From contig SCPW01000038.1 of NCBI GenBank assembly GCA_004298605.1, positions 1 to 6,234 on the forward strand: a stretch of DNA of 6,234 nucleotides, given 5' to 3'. The notes beneath the pieces are model-generated. The model was not told the origin of the DNA. It searched no databases and saw only the letters and a list, made by a program, of their open reading frames with translations. The stretch comes from Gallionella sp. (GTDB taxonomy: Bacteria > Pseudomonadota > Gammaproteobacteria > Burkholderiales > Gallionellaceae). The position numbers were made by a program, and so were the translations under genes. Position 1 is the first letter of the stretch. Every line of letters starts with the position of its first letter. Positions 1 through 6,234 of the stretch are shown here, one piece after another.

Positions 1-717
1 GCGGAATTCTCCCCCCCATCCCAGCACGGCCACCCGCCGGGCGAGGCGGTCCACCACATATATCCCATCCGGCCCCGACGCTATGGCGGCGATGGCGCGC
101 ACTTGCCGCGGTTTGATGATGGACAGCGGCATGCCCATGTTGCTGAATACAACTATCTGGTCGTACAAACCGTCGGCCACCAGCACGCGCCCGCCGCCTT
201 CATCCACCACGACGGAAACCGGGCGCGCCAGGTTGCCGGGTGCGCCCAGCGACGGCAGCGGGGTGCCATCCCAGGCAAAATGCAGCACTTGCCCGACCGC
301 GGGATCGGTTACATAGACCGACATATCAGGTGCGGCGTAAATGCCCGCCCCGGTGTCGGGGGCCAGGGTCGTGAACCTCGCCAGGGTTTGCTGGGCGCGG
401 TTATAGCGGAGGATGCGGCGCAGCCCCGCATCCACCAGATAGATGTCGTTGTTGCGGGCGCTGACGGCAGTCGGGTAAAGCAGTCTGGTGTAGCCGTTAC
501 GCCCGGCGACGCCCCCCAACAATTCACCCGGTTTTGCGCCGGTCAACTCGATCCATGGCCGCAGCAATTCCCCGCGCGCCGTAGCGTTGTCGGGCGTGGC
601 GCAACCGGTCAATATCAAAGCCGCGATAATGCACAATTTGGCGCGGAAGCATTTTTTCAGGGGCTTTTCAAATACCCCGCCCCCCAGCATCCGGTTGAAA
701 AATGAAAGGTTCACCAT
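1..717 (-). CDS. NHL-type beta-propeller lipoprotein (3' end beyond window)
   Basis: Partial gene of 239 codons that runs off the left edge; no stop codon is reached. The N-terminus has a basic stretch (KKCFRAK, residues 21-27), a hydrophobic core and a lipobox LTGC with the lipidated Cys at residue 39. Ala follows at +2, so outer-membrane sorting is expected. The mature part shows propeller blades of the NHL/YVTN kind: DIYLVDAGLRRILRY (about 91-105), SVYVTDPAVGQVLHF (133-147), RVLVADGLYDQIVVF (177-191) and GIYVVDRLARRVAVLG (218-233). There are no CXXCH motifs. The ATG at 717-715 overlaps the stop of the upstream cytochrome by 7 nt (ATGGTGA); the in-frame GTG at 714 or ATG at 690 are possible alternatives because the n-region is long. 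NHL proteins are often found in multiheme cytochrome operons; the role is unknown and is probably scaffolding or binding. Family call is firm, function is inference. Confidence 0.85.
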   Translation of the reverse strand, partial: MVNLSFFNRMLGGGVFEKPLKKCFRAKLCIIAALILTGCATPDNATARGELLRPWIELTGAKPGELLGGVAGRNGYTRLLYPTAVSARNNDIYLVDAGLRRILRYNRAQQTLARFTTLAPDTGAGIYAAPDMSVYVTDPAVGQVLHFAWDGTPLPSLGAPGNLARPVSVVVDEGGGRVLVADGLYDQIVVFSNMGMPLSIIKPRQVRAIAAIASGPDGIYVVDRLARRVAVLGWGGEFR

Positions 718-1133
718 CTGCCCGGCCCCATAGTGCTATCTCCGCCGTGTATCCCGCTTTCCAGCCCCTGTTTTCCGGAATGGCACAGGTCGCAGTTCTC
801 GGGTCCCCAAGCGATCTGGTTGTTATGGCACATGCCGCAAAATTTGCCGTTTACTATATCCCACATGAGCACATCGTTGGCGCCGGCGCGCATCTCGAAA
901 CCAAGCTCGCTGTGGCACACCTTGCAGCGGAAGCGGATGCGATGGAACCAGTGGGGGAAAATCACCGGGCGCACGCCCGCTTTCTCCGCGCGCTTGTTGA
1001 GCACCACGTCGCCGTATTCCGCGTGGAGGGAAAATGGGATAGCCAGCATAGACAATGCCAGCGAGACGATGCCCGCCCGCATAAAGCGGCGAAAACGGTG
1101 TCGGCTGTGCGTGCGCAAATCAGATTCCATCAT
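711..1133 (-). CDS. Periplasmic triheme c7-type cytochrome A' (140 aa)
   Basis: Small secreted cytochrome predicted to carry electrons in the periplasm. A long signal peptide (Arg/His-rich n-region, hydrophobic 20-34) ends at LHA38, and the mature chain starts EYGDVV. Three heme sites are seen: CKVCH 70-74, CGMCH 99-103 and CDLCH 114-118. Candidate distal ligands are His61 and His64 (FPHWFH) and Met90, nine residues before the second heme site. This is the c7 triheme domain layout. It is a paralogue of the gene at 3705-4130, with about 62% identity over 85 mature residues by eye. It starts 6 nt after the stop of B' behind AGGCGGG. Two adjacent ATGs (1133 and 1130) are both plausible, and Met18 would still leave a signal peptide. 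The stop overlaps the start of the NHL lipoprotein gene, so translational coupling is likely. The exact electron partner cannot be told from sequence. Confidence 0.93.
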   Translation of the reverse strand: MMESDLRTHSRHRFRRFMRAGIVSLALSMLAIPFSLHAEYGDVVLNKRAEKAGVRPVIFPHWFHRIRFRCKVCHSELGFEMRAGANDVLMWDIVNGKFCGMCHNNQIAWGPENCDLCHSGKQGLESGIHGGDSTMGPGRW

Positions 1134-1139
1134 GCCCGC

Positions 1140-1736
1140 CTATTGCGCTTTCGCGGGCGCTTGTGCCGCGAACGGTACACTGTGGCAGCGCTGGCATTGT
1201 GTCAAGGGAAAGGCTACCGCGCCGTGGCAGCGACCGCAGTATTCCCCGTCCAGAATGGCGAACATACTGATCGGTGTGGCTCCGGTCTTGGACTTGAACA
1301 GCCATTCGTGGCAGTTGCTGCAATCCAGCCATTCGGTGTGCTGCTTGTGCGGAAAAAGCACCCGGGGCAGTTCCCCCGTGTCCCGCTTCGTCAGCATCAC
1401 ATCCAGGTCGAGAACCTTGATCTTGGTTTCGGGATAAATGTTGGTGCGCGGATTGATATATCCCTCCCTCAGTGCCTTGACCCATTTCACCCGGTTGCCG
1501 ACGACGCTGGATCTCTCATTACCCTCCAAGTCGGGCGGCAACAGGGAGAGGGCCTCGGCGGGGTTCTGTAACAGATCCAGCCTCGGGTTCGACGGGTCAT
1601 GCAAACCGTCCTGTGCCAGCGGCACCCAGTTGCTGTGCGGCGATGCCACAGGAACCGGCTCGGCGGCCAGAGAAGAGAGTGCAATACACAACCCAATGCA
1701 TACAGCGGGCAGCCGCCCAACAATGTATCGTTTCAC
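1140..1736 (-). CDS. Secreted triheme c7-type cytochrome B' with N-terminal domain (198 aa)
   Basis: Three heme sites lie in the C-terminal third: CSNCH 139-143, CGRCH 167-171 and CQRCH 181-185. They follow the FPHKQHTEWLD segment (His130, His133), with Met158 nine residues before the second site. Residues about 38-125 form a heme-free domain shared with the paralogue B (DGLxDPxN, LLQxPxE, GNxxxW, ALxxGxIxPR). I chose the GTG at 1736 because it directly precedes a normal signal peptide (KRYIVGRL, hydrophobic to SLA, mature AEPVP). An in-frame ATG at 1766, with GGAGA about 12 nt upstream, would add 10 residues. The frame stays open to an ATG at 1859, but that extension does not look like a signal peptide. 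The SD before the GTG is poor (AAGGA only 1 nt away), so the start is uncertain. This is the first gene of the second module. Likely periplasmic electron transfer, perhaps membrane- or barrel-associated through the extra domain (inference). Confidence 0.9.
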   Translation of the reverse strand: MKRYIVGRLPAVCIGLCIALSSLAAEPVPVASPHSNWVPLAQDGLHDPSNPRLDLLQNPAEALSLLPPDLEGNERSSVVGNRVKWVKALREGYINPRTNIYPETKIKVLDLDVMLTKRDTGELPRVLFPHKQHTEWLDCSNCHEWLFKSKTGATPISMFAILDGEYCGRCHGAVAFPLTQCQRCHSVPFAAQAPAKAQ

Positions 1737-1923
1737 GTCCTTAATGTTCCAACAAAAAAGCAGCATATCTATAGGGAATCTCCCGAAATTCCATTTTGTG
1801 GGCAAATTTCCGCACCACATGCCCGCCTGTTCCATACGGGCGCAGCCCATCCGGAACACCGCCCCTCGCTATTTATCCCGCAAAAATGAAGTGCTCCCCA
1901 TGCTCCCGAAGCGCAATCTTTTT

Positions 1924-2002
1924 GCGATTGAATTGGAGGCAAGCAATCCGTTATTCTCGCCACGCAAGAATGTGAGATGGGCACCATCGGATGTTTTTAA
2001 CC
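1924..2002 (-). repeat. Intergenic inverted repeat, copy 2 (partner at 4170-4248)
   Basis: Read on the minus strand from 2002 downwards (GGTTAAAAACATCCG...), this 79-nt stretch aligns with the plus strand from 4170 (GGTTAATACATCCG...). By hand I count about 56 matches in 77 aligned positions with four single-base gaps. The best block is CGGATTGC[T/C]TGCCT (1937-1950 here). Weaker similarity continues outward to TTCTGTT (2017-2023 here, 4146-4152 there). The core keeps a dyad ATTCT-N9-AGAAT (1950s-1968). Nature unknown: regulatory dyad, small dispersed repeat, or remnant of a cassette boundary. Confidence 0.65.
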
Positions 2003-2034
2003 TTTGGTGGCGCCGCAACAGAAGTTTGCAGGAA

Positions 2035-2071
2035 CGGGGAATGAGGCAAAAAATCTGCCTTCTATTCCCCG
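2035..2071 (-). terminator. Stem-loop directly after gene C, without a U-tract
   Basis: The perfect 8-bp arms CGGGGAAT (2035-2042) and ATTCCCCG (2064-2071) enclose a second stem AGGCA/TGCCT with a T-rich 7-nt loop. The structure begins only 2 nt after the stop codon of gene C (2074-2076). The sequence following it in the transcription direction (TTCCTGCAAAC) has no run of T, so a classical rho-independent terminator is not supported. It may stabilise the 3' end of the A-B-C message, act as a processing site, or attenuate readthrough into B'-A'. The hairpin itself is clear; its role is inferred. Confidence 0.5.
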
Positions 2072-2073
2072 AA

Positions 2074-2994
2074 TTACTCCGGCACCATCAGCCCGAGCGT
2101 CCGCAACGCAGCCTGCAAGCGTTTGGTCGCGCCCTGCAATGTCATGATGGCAGCCTTATGATCGCCACCCGCAGCCTGCTGTTTCGCGGTATCACGCGCC
2201 ACACGGCTTTCCTGCACGAAGCGTTCGCTCATTTTGATGCTGCCCTCGTTGGGTTTCAATTGTTCATGCGCAATCGGTATCAGTTCTTCGTAGCTGCGAT
2301 AGCGCGCCATTTCATAATCAAACTCCTCGGCTGGCGAGTTGAACTTGGGCTCATATGTCGTAGTTACGGAATCCATCAGTTTATTAAGATCGGAAACACC
2401 CGCCGTATAGCCGCTGTCCAGCAGCTCGATGGCTTCCCGGTAACGTTTGTTTTGCGCGAGCCCCTGAGCCTTGTCAATCAGGCTGCGGTTGCGTTCCAGG
2501 TTGGCGATGATGACGGGCAACTGTTTGTCTTTCGGCGACATATCCTTGCGCATCTCCTGGTAGGTGATCTGGATACCCCGCACATTCTCCAGCAGCTCAT
2601 CGTAACGCGCGCGCTGCTCCGCCTCTACCCGTACCGGATCGGGCGCCAGGCGTGAAGTGTCAGCGATCAGGTGCAACACCTCATCCAACAGCTTCTCTGC
2701 TCCCCCCGTGTCACCTGCTCCAAAGGTGTTATGCGCCTTGGCATAAAGGGCGAGCACCTCCGTCGCTTTTTGTTTGATCGCCGGGTCATCGCTGTGGCTG
2801 GCACGGTCTATGGCGGTAGACTGTGTCAGCAACATTTTAACCAGTTGCAGCTTTTGCTGGACCACTTCCCGCGACGACTGTTTGGCAGCTCCCGCCGCCG
2901 CAGGGGCGGCGGCGGGAGTCTGTGCGGCATGCAAGCTCTGCGCGGCAGTCAGCGAAAGAAGCGTGAAACAAAGCGCAACCGCCCGCTCTCTCAC
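2074..2994 (-). CDS. Secreted Cys-free helical-repeat protein C of unknown function (306 aa)
   Basis: I do not recognise a named family. Starting at the GTG at 2994, the product has a signal peptide (MRERAV, hydrophobic 7-19, cleavage near LHA23/A24), then a short Ala/Pro stretch (25-37), and then an almost wholly alpha-helical chain. Helix pairs with a TPR-like look are seen at about 97-111 (GGAEKLLDEVLHLIA), 183-197 (KRYREAIELLDSGYT) and 277-300 (GDHKAAIMTLQGA... LRTL). The mature protein has no Cys and no CXXCH, so it binds no c-type heme. The start is chosen because GTG overlaps the TGA of cytochrome B (GTGA), with AAAGGG 8 nt upstream and a signal peptide right after it; the open frame continues 63 codons further up but only reads B out of frame. 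Tight coupling to B suggests a periplasmic partner, scaffold or chaperone of the cytochromes (inference). Confidence 0.85.
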   Translation of the reverse strand: MRERAVALCFTLLSLTAAQSLHAAQTPAAAPAAAGAAKQSSREVVQQKLQLVKMLLTQSTAIDRASHSDDPAIKQKATEVLALYAKAHNTFGAGDTGGAEKLLDEVLHLIADTSRLAPDPVRVEAEQRARYDELLENVRGIQITYQEMRKDMSPKDKQLPVIIANLERNRSLIDKAQGLAQNKRYREAIELLDSGYTAGVSDLNKLMDSVTTTYEPKFNSPAEEFDYEMARYRSYEELIPIAHEQLKPNEGSIKMSERFVQESRVARDTAKQQAAGGDHKAAIMTLQGATKRLQAALRTLGLMVPE

Positions 2995-3692
2995 GGCTGC
3001 GGCCCTTTTGCAGCTACCTGTTTCGGCTGCGAATGGCAACGGCGGCATTCGGAAACCGGGAAGGCCACTTTGCCATGGCACACGCCGCATTTCTGCCCGA
3101 GGATGATTGCTGCCATGTTCATCTGGTTGGCACCCTTTTGCGGAACAAAAATGGCAGGGTGGCAGTTGGAGCAATCCAGCCATTCGGTGTGCTGCTTGTG
3201 GGGGAAAACCACATCCGGCATAGTCCCTTTTGGCACGCGCACGACGCTCATATCCATGACCATCGGTTCGGCAGTCGGATCGTTGCGGTCCCAGCGTGGC
3301 TTGATCTTGCCATCATTCAGTGCGGCCACCCAGTTAATCCCGTTACCGAGGTCACCCTGGCTCTTGGGCAGGCTGGCATAAACTTCCAGCGGTGGTTGCA
3401 GCAATGCTGTTTCGACATTGGTCGGGTCGCGGAGACCGTCTTCAGGCGGCGGCAGGTGACGGCGGGGTGCAACCTTCATCAGCCGGTTAAAGGGGCTGGC
3501 CGCAGCTCCGGCCATGGCTGGCTGGGGTTGCTGGGGTACCGGCGCAGGAGACGCGACCGGTGCTGCCTGGGCAGGCGTTGCCTTGGCCGCACTTCCTTTG
3601 GCCGGTTGAGGCGCAGTGGCCGCAATAGCCGCCGGCGCACTCATCAGCACGGACAGCAGGGCGAAATATATCAGTTTTGACAGATGATTCAT
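2991..3692 (-). CDS. Secreted triheme c7-type cytochrome B with Pro/Ala linker (233 aa)
   Basis: The signal peptide runs MNHLSKLIYF... to about Ala24/25. Residues 26-66 are a low-complexity Ala/Pro/Gln linker, which would let the rest reach away from an anchor or partner. Residues about 75-160 form the heme-free domain shared with B' (EDGLRDPTN, ALLQPP, GNGINWVAAL, KIKPRW). The C-terminal c7 domain has FPHKQHTEWLD (His165, His168), CSNCH 174-178, Met193, CGVCH 202-206 and CRRCH 216-220. The ATG at 3692 follows a very strong AAGGAGGAGG site that overlaps the stop codon of A, and the TGA overlaps the GTG of gene C. It is likely a periplasmic electron carrier acting with A. Compared with B', the main difference is the extra linker; a 30-nt stretch is identical at DNA level. 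Confidence 0.93.
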   Translation of the reverse strand: MNHLSKLIYFALLSVLMSAPAAIAATAPQPAKGSAAKATPAQAAPVASPAPVPQQPQPAMAGAAASPFNRLMKVAPRRHLPPPEDGLRDPTNVETALLQPPLEVYASLPKSQGDLGNGINWVAALNDGKIKPRWDRNDPTAEPMVMDMSVVRVPKGTMPDVVFPHKQHTEWLDCSNCHPAIFVPQKGANQMNMAAIILGQKCGVCHGKVAFPVSECRRCHSQPKQVAAKGPQP

Positions 3693-3696
3693 GTTA

Positions 3697-3706
3697 CCTC
3701 CTCCTT
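3697..3706 (-). promoter_or_regulatory. Strong ribosome binding site of cytochrome B
   Basis: AAGGAGGAGG lies 4 nt before the ATG at 3692 (its AAGGAG core about 8 nt) and includes the first two bases read as part of the TAA stop of cytochrome A. It is the best SD in the window and predicts high expression of B by coupled translation. Confidence 0.8.
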
Positions 3707-4130
3707 ATTTGGTGGCTGACGATCTGGCTGGGGTTGCCAGTTCCTGCAACGTGCTTTCGTGTACCTGGGTCGGCGTACCCGGCTTACCGGAGTGACACAG
3801 GTTACAGTTGCTCACCGACCAGGCAATGCTACCGTTGTGGCAGCCGCCGCAATATTTGCCATCGATAATTTTAAGCATATCGATTTCGTTGCCGCCCGCC
3901 TTGAACTTGAAGCCGAGATCGGCGTGGCATACCTTGCAGGCGAAGCGGACACGGTGAAACCAGTGGGGGAATACCACCGGGCGCATTTCTGCTTTATCCG
4001 AGTAATTATTGATGACCACGTCGCCGTACTCGGCCATGGCGGGCCGTGTGTAGACGAAGGTGGCGGCCAGGACGAGCGACCAGACCAACAGCATCCGGCT
4101 CATGAGGGTGCGTCTAATCAGAGATTGCAT
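3705..4130 (-). CDS. Periplasmic triheme c7-type cytochrome A (141 aa)
   Basis: The signal peptide is MQSLIRRTL followed by a hydrophobic core, cleaved after AMA33 to give EYGDVV. Heme sites are CKVCH 65-69, CGGCH 94-98 and CNLCH 109-113. Candidate distal ligands are His56 and His59 (FPHWFH) and Met85; a further His124 in the tail has a counterpart in A' (His129). The predicted mature protein is about 108 aa, somewhat larger than the roughly 70-aa PpcA-type c7. The start is the ATG at 4130, with AAGGAAGG (4139-4146) at a good distance. The frame is open 40 codons further up to 4250, but that extension would bury the signal peptide, so I reject it. It is the first gene of the A-B-C module; TAA is 12 nt before the start of B. 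Role: periplasmic electron transfer to or from the outer-membrane barrel (inference from context). Confidence 0.94.
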   Translation of the reverse strand: MQSLIRRTLMSRMLLVWSLVLAATFVYTRPAMAEYGDVVINNYSDKAEMRPVVFPHWFHRVRFACKVCHADLGFKFKAGGNEIDMLKIIDGKYCGGCHNGSIAWSVSNCNLCHSGKPGTPTQVHESTLQELATPARSSATK

Positions 4131-4169
4131 TCCGTTTTCCTTCCTTTCTGTTAATGAACCTGAACCCAG

Positions 4170-4248
4170 GGTTAATACATCCGTCGGCGTCAATTCCACA
4201 ATTTTTGCACGGCGAAAAATTGCGGATTGCCTGCCTTTATTAAACCGC
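4170..4248 (+). repeat. Intergenic inverted repeat, copy 1 (partner at 1924-2002)
   Basis: The plus strand here matches the minus strand of 2002-1924, about 73% by hand alignment with four single-base gaps. The block CGGATTGCCTGCCT lies at 4223-4236. This copy is itself a large imperfect palindrome: outer arms GGTT-AAT and ATTAAACC, a middle pair ATCCG/CGGAT, and a perfect inner pair CAATTTTT/AAAAATTG. With copy 2 it brackets genes A-B-C with opposite orientations. Confidence 0.65.
4199..4222. promoter_or_regulatory. Perfect 8-bp dyad upstream of cytochrome A (possible operator)
   Basis: CAATTTTT (4199-4206) and AAAAATTG (4215-4222) are exact inverted arms around GCACGGCG. The stem is A/T-rich with no T-run outside it, so a DNA-binding dyad fits at least as well as an RNA terminator. 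It sits 69-92 bp before the start codon of A and overlaps a weak candidate -35. No regulator family can be named from it. Confidence 0.4.
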
Positions 4249-4263
4249 ACAAGCTAACCCACG

Positions 4264-4287
4264 CTACGAGTTAATCGAATATGACAT
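4264..4287 (-). other. Possible 7-codon leader ORF with good SD
   Basis: ATG at 4287 is preceded by AGAAAGGAAATAA, a well-placed SD, and is followed by six codons and TAG (peptide MSYSINS). The SD stretch (4291-4309 on the plus strand) matches the SD stretch of cytochrome A (4136-4154) at 17 of 19 bases. It may be a real leader peptide, a relic of a duplicated gene start, or chance. Confidence 0.3.
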
Positions 4288-4340
4288 TTATTTCCTTTCT
4301 TTCTGTTGAGTTGACATAAAACTTCGCATCATCAAATCAC

Positions 4341-6234
4341 CTAAAATTGCCTGTTCACACTGAACCAATACAAGGATTGTTTTATTTTATTGACTTCCGC
4401 CAGGCGCGCGCTGGCCCGCAACTGGAGGCGTCCGATAGCATAGTCGAAACGGTTCTCCCAAGAGAGCGTTTCCTCTTTATCGGGGGTCGCCAGCACCGGA
4501 ACGAGCGAGTCGCCAAAAATCCGCAGCTCCGAGGTAAACCGCAGGCGCGGCACATTAAATGCGCGCTGATGGCGATAGCTCAAATCCGCGCTGGAAGTGG
4601 TAGTCGTCAAAGTCGGCGTAGTGGCGGTCTCCTGCCGCACCACCTGGGCGGTCAGATTGCCGCCCCACGTGGCGTTACGGCTCAGGTTCTCGTTGAGAGA
4701 CGCCTGCAGGTTGATCATCTGAAAAGAATACGGGGTGCCGCCCATGGCGCGCGAATCGTTGGCGCTCAAATGCACCAGAGTGGTTTTCCGGCCTTCTGAA
4801 AGGCCCCACGAGAGCGAGCCCGTATGCGTCAGGATCGAAGTGGATGCACTGCGGGTATCCACATCAAACGAAACTGACTGGTTCAGGTTCATCCCCAACG
4901 TACCCTTACCCAGTCCGATTTTACGGTTCAGCCCATGGCTGGGGCTCAGCGAAAAGTGCTGCGCGCCACCGAGAGAATCGGTGTTATTGCTGACGCTGCT
5001 CGCAATGGAGCGGGTATAGTTAAAAGCGCCGAGCGCTATCGCGTCCGGCTGGTAGGTAACCCCGACGTTTTGGTTGGTTGACACGGTTTGGTTGCCGCCG
5101 TTGTCGGCCACGTTGACATTGCCGCTGCCGTTCAGCCGGATATGTTTGGACCAATCGTAATTCGCGCCCACATTTGCATTGGCGTTGCGCGTCTTTGTAA
5201 TAGTGGTGTTGGTGGTATTGCTGTAGTCGCTCAGCCGCACGCCGCCGTTAACGTTAAAGGGCTTTTCGGTGGATCGCCAGTACGCGGAACTGCTCAATTG
5301 CATATAGCTGAAATCATGCCCGCCCTGCGTCAGGCGATAGTTCGCCTTGGCCATATTGGCAAGGCTTTCCACTGAAAGGCTGGTATCCGGGCGGTAACTG
5401 TGCTGGGACACCAGGTTATTGGTCAGCGTGCTTTGATTGGTGCGCGGTTGCTCATTGCGCGTGGAGTCACCGCTTATCCGGAGCGTCTGGTTGGCAAACT
5501 GCTGCGTCGTTTCGGCGCGAAATGTATCCTGCTTGTTCTCGTCCAGGTTCGCGCTTTCCCACAGGTCATGGACATAGCTCACCATATAATTGGCGCCGCC
5601 GGACAGGGGGCGGTAACGTTGGGTCAAGCCATAGCGTGTGGTTTGGTAGGCGGATGAAGCGGCGCCGAGGCTGCTGTTTTGCCGGCTGTCACTCCTGTCG
5701 AAGCGCGCCTCGAACGGAAAGCGGCTGGACGGCAACAAGGACAAGACCGCATTACCCGTGACGATATTGTTCGAAGATTTTCCAGCCGTCGTGCCGTTCG
5801 CCGAACCGGCCTCCGTGCTGGTTGTATTGAAGCCTAGACCCAAGCCGCCGCTCACTCGGGCAAACCAAGGTTGCCAGATAAAGGAGTTGGCGGTGGCGTT
5901 CACATTGGTATTGAGCGACTGTGTCATGTATTTGTCCGCCCCGATGGTCTGGCGCTGCGTATCATAGCCGATGCTCCCACCAAGCACAAACTCGATGGGT
6001 GCCAGTTGCAGCGAGGAAGCCCGCTTCGCAACGGGCTCCGGCATTGCTTCCGCTGCGGGAGCGGCGGCGACCCTGGCGGTAGCGGCTCTGGCGGCAGCAG
6101 GCGATGCGCCTATCATCCGAGCAAGCTTCAGGCGCAGCGGTCGGGCATCACCGCCCCCGTCCCCGAAAGCCGTGAGCGGCTGTCTCGCCGCCGTTTCGTC
6201 GGGAGCGGCGGCAGATACGCCGATCGCTTGCGCG
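4341..6234 (-). CDS. Outer-membrane beta-barrel protein, porin-like, 5' truncated by window edge (at least 630 aa)
   Basis: The frame is open from the right edge to the TAG at 4341. An internal ATG at 6116 could be taken as the start, but the 39 codons upstream stay open and begin AQA-IGVSAAAPDE. That resembles the end of a signal peptide with a signal peptidase I site, so the true start lies past 6234. Residues about 1-73 (counted from the edge) are an Ala/Pro-rich, partly basic periplasmic segment. From about 75 (LQLAPIEFVLGGSIGYD) to the end, the chain shows alternating hydrophobic/polar strands rich in Asn, Ser, Thr, Gly and Tyr. It ends YWFSVNRQF, the C-terminal Phe typical of BAM-inserted barrels. 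There is no Cys and no heme motif. About 550 barrel residues would suit 20 or more strands. Placed before four triheme cytochromes, it is a candidate porin of a porin-cytochrome conduit; MtrB/PioB or Geobacter-type membership cannot be shown by eye. Confidence 0.85.
   Translation of the reverse strand, partial: AQAIGVSAAAPDETAARQPLTAFGDGGGDARPLRLKLARMIGASPAAARAATARVAAAPAAEAMPEPVAKRASSLQLAPIEFVLGGSIGYDTQRQTIGADKYMTQSLNTNVNATANSFIWQPWFARVSGGLGLGFNTTSTEAGSANGTTAGKSSNNIVTGNAVLSLLPSSRFPFEARFDRSDSRQNSSLGAASSAYQTTRYGLTQRYRPLSGGANYMVSYVHDLWESANLDENKQDTFRAETTQQFANQTLRISGDSTRNEQPRTNQSTLTNNLVSQHSYRPDTSLSVESLANMAKANYRLTQGGHDFSYMQLSSSAYWRSTEKPFNVNGGVRLSDYSNTTNTTITKTRNANANVGANYDWSKHIRLNGSGNVNVADNGGNQTVSTNQNVGVTYQPDAIALGAFNYTRSIASSVSNNTDSLGGAQHFSLSPSHGLNRKIGLGKGTLGMNLNQSVSFDVDTRSASTSILTHTGSLSWGLSEGRKTTLVHLSANDSRAMGGTPYSFQMINLQASLNENLSRNATWGGNLTAQVVRQETATTPTLTTTTSSADLSYRHQRAFNVPRLRFTSELRIFGDSLVPVLATPDKEETLSWENRFDYAIGRLQLRASARLAEVNKIKQSLYWFSVNRQF

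What the first reader, a model, noticed from the sequence alone, without database searches (positions are those of the whole stretch)
1..6234. Candidate electron conduit locus built from four small triheme cytochromes, a barrel, a helical protein and a propeller lipoprotein
Seen: all genes lie on one strand. A large outer-membrane barrel is followed by two tightly packed modules with four secreted proteins of three CXXCH sites each (12 hemes in total), a Cys-free helical protein and an NHL lipoprotein. Known: porin-cytochrome conduits (MtrCAB, PioAB, Geobacter Omb-Oma-Omc and Ext) use large multiheme cytochromes with a barrel. Inference: this locus replaces or supplements one large cytochrome with several c7 units. 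The parts outside the window could include a classical large cytochrome.
Basis: partly seen in the sequence, partly recalled or inferred. Interest (0 to 1): 0.7.

Follow-up and report, generated by a model that had tools for sequence, protein, structure and literature searches.

The report
Uet outer-membrane electron conduit in Gallionella
This stretch of DNA from a Gallionella-like bacterium holds the middle of an already described gene cluster (Uet) that is predicted to carry electrons across the outer membrane, and in its relatives the same cluster also holds, upstream, a gene for a homologue of the Geobacter nanowire cytochrome OmcE, which would likely form a wire outside the cell.

Summary
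In detail: seven minus-strand genes, namely a cut barrel, four secreted triheme cytochromes (12 CXXCH), a helical protein and a cut NHL lipoprotein. The locus is not new. It is the middle of Uet (undecaheme electron transfer), described for Ca. Tenderia and reported in Gallionella in 2023. The window is one whole 6.2-kb contig. Relatives give the rest: a tetraheme UetA and a PPIase upstream, an 11-heme UetJ downstream. Of 60 named loci matching barrel and UetJ, 57 have triheme order AD-BC-F-BC-AD; 3 keep only BC-AD. So the c7 units do not replace a large cytochrome. New here, as far as I could read: (1) all 300 trihemes examined keep the Met that is an axial heme ligand in GSU1996, so one His/Met heme each is predicted; (2) the barrel is predicted to have 28 strands; (3) UetA is a homologue of the filament cytochrome OmcE, with four distal His in 58 of 58; (4) UetJ is an OmcE-type module joined to seven more hemes. 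I infer that Uet couples a periplasmic c7 pool through the barrel to an OmcE-type wire, with UetJ as adaptor. The founding Uet paper was not readable here.

The parts
4341..6233 (-). UetC-type outer-membrane barrel, 5' end cut by the contig end (630 of 771 aa)
3705..4130 (-). Triheme cytochrome A (AD type, upstream copy; UetD position)
   Evidence: TIGR04257 64.5 bits; 3 CXXCH; 60% identical to D over 92 aa
2991..3692 (-). Triheme cytochrome B (BC type, upstream copy; UetE position), Ala/Pro-rich N-terminus
   Evidence: TIGR04257 67.8 bits; 45% identical to C; lacks the extra CXXCH that 52 of 63 upstream BC frames of relatives have
2074..2994 (-). Secreted helical-repeat protein (UetF position; a TPR gene holds this place in Ca. 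Tenderia)
   Evidence: Long helices in three 3-helix units; units 2 and 3 related, hhalign probability 90; 96 homologues, most of the closest 305-309 aa long, which supports the GTG start at 2994 over the ATG at 3183
1140..1736 (-). Triheme cytochrome C (BC type, downstream copy); GTG start taken, the frame is open to 1859
   Evidence: TIGR04257 64.3 bits; 3 CXXCH
711..1133 (-). Triheme cytochrome D (AD type, downstream copy)
   Evidence: TIGR04257 62.5 bits; invariant Met90 aligns with GSU1996 Met209 (position in the chain counted by me)
1..717 (-). NHL lipoprotein (UetH position), 3' end cut by the contig end; overlaps the end of D by 7 bases
   Evidence: Pfam NHL 20.4 bits; lipobox LTGC; matches the NHL1 gene of relatives (the window sequence was one of the two seeds of that model)

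Best explanation
The contig carries the middle of a Uet (undecaheme electron transfer) locus, whose products likely form an outer-membrane electron conduit in which a predicted 28-strand barrel couples a periplasmic pool of four triheme cytochromes to extracellular cytochromes. Shown: gene content, order, heme-site counts, the GSU1996-type Met in every triheme examined, and the homology of UetA and of the UetJ N-terminus to OmcE. Inferred: electrons from an outside donor (dissolved or mineral Fe(II)) enter through UetA, which would polymerise like OmcE. UetJ, an OmcE-type module with seven more hemes, would sit at the barrel and join the wire to the cell. The c7 units A-D, each predicted to hold two bis-His hemes and one His/Met heme, would take the electrons on the periplasmic side and pass them towards the inner membrane, with UetF holding them in place, UetB (PPIase) helping secreted cytochromes fold, and the NHL lipoproteins holding the complex at the membrane. 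Uptake rather than export is my choice for this host, on the strength of its RuBisCO and its iron-oxidiser kin; it is untested.
For: Order AD-BC-F-BC-AD between barrel and UetJ in 57 of 60 named loci; UetA-PPIase-barrel consecutive in 57 of 65 loci with a barrel. The published Uet content is the same: UetJ undecaheme, UetA tetraheme, triheme UetDEG, UetB PPIase, UetHI NHL, UetC barrel; in Ca. Tenderia a TPR gene lies among the trihemes by locus number and appears co-transcribed with them, and these genes are among its most highly expressed on the cathode. Own genome: contig C172 ends with UetA, UetB and codons 2-50 of P0097, the protein whose residues 142-771 are the window's barrel. Met conserved in 300 of 300 trihemes, aligned with the axial Met209 of GSU1996. 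UetA against OmcE 7TFS E 5.9e-27, four distal His in 58 of 58. UetJ residues 1-286 match UetA at E 2.9e-25. Own genome: RuBisCO large-subunit matches, no decaheme MtoA over the cut-off.
Against: The own contig lacks UetJ. The 11-heme gene of G000 (C192) lies beside a 331-aa gene without CXXCH and an OmcE-like 4-heme gene, not beside NHL genes, and may be a paralogue. The canonical NHL2 gene was not found in G000 (best 37% identity). Barrel fold: MtrB is first, but TonB-dependent transporters score within 1 Z unit. Of 48 loci of 20 kb or more, 4 lack part of the set: three Kiloniellaceae with a lone BC-AD pair and no barrel, and L042 without barrel, PPIase or UetA. An OmcE match is not special to UetA: another tetraheme of G000 outside Uet has it too. 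No sequence of Ca. Tenderia was compared, and the expression change of its trihemes between two potentials was not significant. Only 3 of 36 other genomes of the genus hold the locus. Many hosts in the list are not known iron oxidisers (recalled), so uptake is not secured.
Confidence: 0.7

Rival explanations
1. The four c7 units stack inside the barrel as a 12-heme wire, doing in four chains what GSU1996 does in one and what MtrA does in MtrB; UetJ is only the outside terminal.
For: Four c7 domains of the GSU1996 kind; predicted 28-strand barrel, backbone radius about 24-28 A by the standard formula, somewhat wider than a 26-strand barrel at the same tilt (that MtrB has 26 strands is recalled); AD and BC types kept in fixed positions in 57 of 60 loci; B and D each one clade in the tree.
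Against: Three Gallionella loci (L036, L045, L107) keep barrel and UetJ without A, B and F; in most relatives the upstream BC frame has one or more extra heme sites (52 of 63), awkward for a packed stack; no co-structure was computed.
Confidence: 0.25
2. The barrel is mainly an export and assembly pore for UetA and UetJ, with the PPIase as chaperone, and electrons cross the membrane along the exported wire itself.
For: UetA, PPIase and barrel are consecutive in 57 of 65 loci; UetA is a homologue of a filament cytochrome; the barrel has no heme part: 0 of 65 homologues have CXXCH or CXXC.
Against: The trihemes are locked into the same order, which export alone would not need; known porin-cytochrome barrels hold cytochromes (recalled).
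Confidence: 0.25
3. The system works outward: it delivers electrons to Mn(III/IV) or Fe(III) in most carriers, and in Gallionella it is a minor or reversed use.
For: Many carriers are Burkholderiales, Rhodocyclales and Dechloromonas; a 2026 paper cites undecaheme cytochromes also from the Mn-reducing Ca. Dechloromonas occultata.
Against: Tenderia lives on a cathode and expresses the trihemes highly; G000 has RuBisCO; GSU1996-type His/Met hemes would be expected to raise the potential (recalled rule), which suits uptake.
Confidence: 0.3

Closest known systems
Uet of Candidatus Tenderia electrophaga (uetABCDEFGHIJ)
   Same: Tetraheme, PPIase, barrel, trihemes around a TPR/helical gene, NHL genes, undecaheme
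   Different: Papers that I could read count three trihemes (UetDEG); here and in 57 of 60 relatives with barrel and UetJ there are four
Uet reported in six Gallionella genomes (PMC10734462)
   Same: Gallionella and the same gene set
   Different: That text holds neither OmcE nor filament as a word, and the passages read do not discuss the heme ligand, the triheme order or the barrel structure
MtrCAB / MtoAB / PioAB
   Same: Outer-membrane barrel plus multiheme cytochromes; MtrB is the top structural match, tied with TonB-dependent transporters
   Different: No decaheme MtrA/MtoA over the cut-off in this genome; no family hit for the barrel
GSU1996 dodecaheme of Geobacter
   Same: c7 domains with HxxH and the axial Met; best PDB relatives of A/D and B
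   Different: Four domains in one chain there, four separate proteins here
OmcE filament of Geobacter (7TFS)
   Same: UetA aligns in order over residues 14-204 and 256-290 of 290, with all four CXXCH and four distal His
   Different: Polymerisation of UetA is not shown; UetA lies outside the window, on C172
PpcA-E charging of OmcS nanowires
   Same: Triheme c7 proposed to feed an extracellular cytochrome wire directly
   Different: The Geobacter triheme c7 proteins have all-bis-His hemes, unlike the prediction here

Membership tests
Uet locus | Tetraheme UetA, PPIase UetB and barrel UetC in a row | tested here: met
   Relatives: 57 of 65 loci with a barrel. Own genome: C172 ends in UetA, UetB and barrel codons 2-50; P0097 bridges to the window
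Uet locus | Triheme cytochromes around a helical/TPR gene | tested here: met
   In the window and in 57 of 60 relatives with barrel and UetJ
Uet locus | NHL gene(s) after the trihemes | tested here: met
   One, cut by the contig end, in the window; of 60 relatives 47 have NHL1 and NHL2 there, 13 NHL2 alone
Uet locus | Undecaheme UetJ at the end | tested here: inconclusive
   Present in the four nearest relatives; in G000 an 11-heme gene lies on C192 in another context; the window contig ends before the place
Uet locus | Sequence relation to the Ca. Tenderia proteins | not tested
   No record titled Tenderia was among the 80 loci kept; founding paper not held
MtrCAB/MtoAB | Decaheme MtrA/MtoA (TIGR03508) | tested here: not met
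   0 of 1 genome over the cut-off; genome 85.8% complete, so a gene in the missing part is not excluded
MtrCAB/MtoAB | MtrB-type barrel | tested here: inconclusive
   No NCBIfam or Pfam hit; MtrB first by structure but tied with TonB-dependent transporters
GSU1996-type c7 (TIGR04257) | Family score and axial Met | tested here: met
   62.5-67.8 bits, cut-off 40; Met in 300 of 300
PpcA-type c7 | Three bis-His hemes | tested here: not met
   By sequence only: the place of the third distal ligand holds the invariant Met; 27 of 300 have any His in that stretch
OmcE family (UetA, outside the window) | Homologous sequence, four hemes, four distal His | tested here: met
   E 5.9e-27; His columns 58 of 58, exactly four CXXCH in 57 of 58
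OmcE family (UetA, outside the window) | Forms a filament with an inter-subunit His ligand | not testable with these tools
   Needs cryo-EM; known for OmcE

The most novel reading that the evidence does not exclude
Uet is the cell-end socket of an OmcE-type cytochrome nanowire in Beta- and Gammaproteobacteria: UetA is the polymerising protomer, UetJ is a protomer with a seven-heme tail that plugs into the 28-strand barrel and starts the wire, and mirror-arranged c7 pairs load or unload it. To my knowledge it would be the first gene cluster seen to encode a nanowire together with its own trans-membrane dock.
Probability: 0.35. Interest if true: 0.8.

Novelty: new member of a known kind. Interest (0 to 1): 0.5.

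Why it matters
How cytochrome nanowires connect to the cell is, as I understand the field (recalled), unsettled in Geobacter. A cluster that links an OmcE homologue, an OmcE-fused 11-heme protein, a barrel and dedicated c7 carriers in one fixed order makes that question testable by deletion and cryo-EM, and several carriers are named strains (for example Dechloromonas hankyongensis, Sphaerotilus mobilis, Sedimenticola hydrogenitrophicus). For iron-oxidising bacteria it suggests that Uet reaches beyond the cell surface.

Tried and rejected
Rejected: a new conduit class built only from small c7 units. Relatives hold an 11-heme gene. Rejected: four trihemes as a special feature of this genome. 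It is the usual state (57 of 60). Rejected: the 9-CXXCH, 654-aa protein on C37 as the missing large cytochrome; its neighbours on that contig are no Uet genes. An apparent swap of the last two trihemes in some loci came from over-long ORF starts and vanished when genes were ordered by their ends. UetF: no structural match at E 0.001 or better, so no fold-based function is claimed. Promoter and terminator scan: 1 promoter-like site against a mean of 2.6 in shuffles, 11 terminator-like against 7.9, so no claim. The seven-heme part of UetJ matches nothing among sequences of solved structures at E 1. Other OmcE-like 4- and 5-heme genes occur in G000, and the one that I tested also matches 7TFS (E 2.3e-20), so an OmcE match alone does not mark Uet. 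One search scanned a piece cut at wrong coordinates; the whole protein was scanned.

Limits of counts: one search kept the best 80 of 317 confirmed loci; locus counts refer to these 80, so they favour close kin. The 300 trihemes include the window's four. Of the 60 loci with barrel and UetJ matches, 55 show all 11 CXXCH of UetJ in one frame; the rest are cut or split. Frames were taken from the first possible start, so some are too long; of the 52 extra heme sites before B-type domains, 47 lie within 260 residues of the c7 part. The tree used the window and every third locus (20 of 58) and only 72 columns; its A and C groups were not single clades, one C row joined the B group with support 99/86, yet neither group was rejected as a clade (AU p 0.45, 0.48).

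Literature: 10 searches used. None of the seven papers listed was seen to call UetA an OmcE relative. I saw passages of them, one full section of PMC13264449 and the outline with abstract of PMC10734462. Eddie 2022 (Uet), Wang 2022 (OmcE) and a 2023 Cell paper on nanowires, looked up by a recalled DOI, are not held, so priority cannot be settled.
Full report
WHAT IS THERE. The window is a complete 6,234-base contig (C372) of a 2.3-Mb draft genome in 462 contigs, 85.8% complete. All seven genes lie on the minus strand. Four of them, A (4130-3705), B (3692-2991), C (1736-1140) and D (1133-711), encode proteins with three CXXCH each, and all pass the curated cut-off of TIGR04257. A barrel gene (6233-4341) and an NHL lipoprotein gene (717-1) are cut by the contig ends. 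Between B and C lies a helical protein (2994-2074).

WHOSE GENOME. Three other genomes of the same genus in the collection hold the locus (G012, G030, G036). G036 and G030 are the contigs of two MAGs titled Gallionella sp. (L056, L107) and G012 one titled Nitrosomonadales bacterium (L040), by equal contig length. In all, 3 of 36 other genomes of the genus and 1 of 24 other genomes of the order match, so the locus is patchy. The genome has RuBisCO large-subunit matches on two contigs.

THE REST OF THE LOCUS. In G036, G012 and G030 the barrel is preceded by a PPIase and, in G012, by a tetraheme protein before that; in all four relatives (G047 included, whose contig begins at the barrel) the trihemes are followed by one or two NHL genes and an 11-CXXCH protein of 873-927 aa. 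In the own genome, contig C172 ends with a tetraheme gene, a PPIase gene (Rotamase 66 bits) and the start of a barrel gene: its last 49 codons equal residues 2-50 of P0097, and the window's barrel equals residues 142-771 of the same protein. The missing 91 residues fall in a stretch with a repeated motif (PLRLKLAQ-like, four copies in P0097, none in 2,000 shuffles), a likely cause of the assembly break.

IDENTITY. A 2023 paper on Gallionellaceae reports the same set in six Gallionella under the name Uet: undecaheme UetJ, tetraheme UetA, trihemes UetDEG, PPIase UetB, NHL UetHI, and barrel UetC in four of the six (PMC10734462, outline, abstract and passages). In Ca. Tenderia three trihemes and a TPR gene appear co-transcribed and are among its most highly expressed genes on a cathode, without a significant change between two potentials (PMC5371394, passages). 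The cluster name uetABCDEFGHIJ stands in a 2025 review (PMC12575090, passage), and UetJ with its porin is reported in the Leptothrix group (PMC13386937, passages). The founding 2022 paper is not held.

CONSERVATION. A scan of named genomes with an alignment of D-type cytochromes and the window's A gave 317 confirmed loci; the best 80 were kept. Of these, 65 hold a barrel and 60 match barrel and UetJ. In 57 of 60 the part between is AD-BC-F-BC-AD, with one or two F genes; the other 3 are Gallionella loci with only BC-AD. F copies in the 60: two in 38, one in 19, none in 3. After the trihemes 47 of 60 have NHL1 and NHL2, 13 NHL2 alone. Of 48 loci of 20 kb or more, 44 hold UetA, PPIase, barrel and UetJ; the misses are three Kiloniellaceae, with a lone BC-AD pair, and L042. 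In a tree of 20 loci the AD and BC types separate fully (100/100), and B and D are each one clade (100/99); A and C are not single clades in the best tree, and one C row joins B with support 99/86, but neither was rejected as a clade. So the four positions look like old, distinct members rather than recent copies; this is best supported for B and D. Within the window A and D are 60% identical and B and C 45%.

HEME LIGANDS. All 300 trihemes examined have HxxH before the first heme site and a Met nine residues before the second. The best relatives among solved structures are the dodecaheme GSU1996 and its fragments (that 3OV0 is GSU1996 is stated in PMC10138318). Counting along the chain, the Met falls on Met209, which is an axial ligand there, one His/Met heme per domain, while the periplasmic triheme cytochromes have only bis-His hemes (PMC10138318, passages). 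I therefore predict two bis-His hemes and one His/Met heme per triheme. That His/Met ligation raises the potential is recalled knowledge, not tested.

BARREL. The model of the window's barrel (62 sequences, pLDDT 89.4, pTM 0.66) has 28 strands by my count of the listed elements. MtrB is the structural match with the highest Z (19.7, 385 residues, rmsd 9.9) and has the highest TM-score of the rows shown (0.42), but TonB-dependent transporters lie within one Z unit. No sequence among solved structures matches better than E 0.42. By the usual formula the backbone radius would be about 24-28 A.

THE OMCE LINK. UetA of this genome matches only two sequences among solved structures at E 1 or better, OmcE 7TFS (E 5.9e-27) and 9YUQ (1.3e-24); the OmcE match runs in order over residues 14-204 and 256-290, to the last residue of both proteins. 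That 7TFS is OmcE comes from PMC12954529 (passages). In 58 of 58 UetA sequences there are eight His columns without exception: four in CXXCH and four others, each of which aligns with a His of OmcE. In OmcE a heme is ligated by a His of the next subunit (PMC12203936 and PMC9473688, passages). UetJ begins with a full module of this kind: UetA aligns to residues 1-286 of the UetJ of L040 at 32% identity, E 2.9e-25, and the heme and distal His of that module are kept in 61 of 61 UetJ; seven more hemes follow, and that part alone matches no solved structure at E 1. In Geobacter, OmcE also seems to lie near a triheme gene: the accession numbers of ppcA, gsu0616 and omcE run 39995719, 39995723, 39995725 (PMC1829397, passage); that these are gene neighbours is my inference from the numbers. 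Against over-reading: another OmcE-like 4-heme gene of G000, outside Uet, also matches 7TFS (E 2.3e-20).

MECHANISM. I commit to a dock-and-wire model: outside donor, UetA wire, UetJ at the barrel, c7 pool, inner membrane. Parts and order are shown; polymerisation, the seat of UetJ, the roles of UetF and the NHL proteins, and the direction are inferred.

VERDICT. A real, ordinary member of a known and little-studied system, with a structural reading (OmcE-type wire plus dock) that I did not find in the papers I could read and that can be tested.

Noticed in passing
window 6095-6233 and protein P0097 residues 1-215: The N-terminus of the barrel carries a repeated motif PLRLKLAQ.IGASPA (four copies in P0097, none in 2,000 shuffles; the window holds the last copy and the end of the one before); 11 of 65 homologues have two or more copies. 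A docking motif is possible; unexplained.
   Followed up: partly
window 2991-3692 (B) against relatives: Upstream BC frames of relatives usually have one or more extra CXXCH before the c7 part (52 of 63 have 4 to 6 sites; 47 of the 52 within 260 residues); the window's B has none.
   Followed up: partly
L048, L050, L071, L101: Alphaproteobacterial loci (three titled Kiloniellaceae) hold a BC-AD pair without barrel or F nearby; L101 is only 5.5 kb.
   Followed up: partly
L027 (G000:C192) 711-5695: A second type of undecaheme cluster: an 11-heme gene beside a 331-aa gene without CXXCH and an OmcE-like tetraheme.
   Followed up: partly
L028 (C172) 1318-2217, L029 (C74) 234-1268: Further 5-CXXCH proteins related to the UetJ N-terminus, with NHL-like genes also on these contigs.
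   Followed up: no
L036, L045, L107: Gallionella loci that lack A, B and F but keep barrel, C, D and UetJ.
   Followed up: partly
L019 1069-2916: A 615-aa protein joining a FecR domain to a UetA-like tetraheme part, upstream of UetA in G012; UetA-like frames of 650 and 624 aa lie at the same place in L036 and L045, their FecR part not tested.
   Followed up: no
window 2074-2994 (UetF): Three 3-helix units, the last two related (hhalign probability 90; the other pairs 29 and 30), no structural match at E 0.001 or better.
   Followed up: yes
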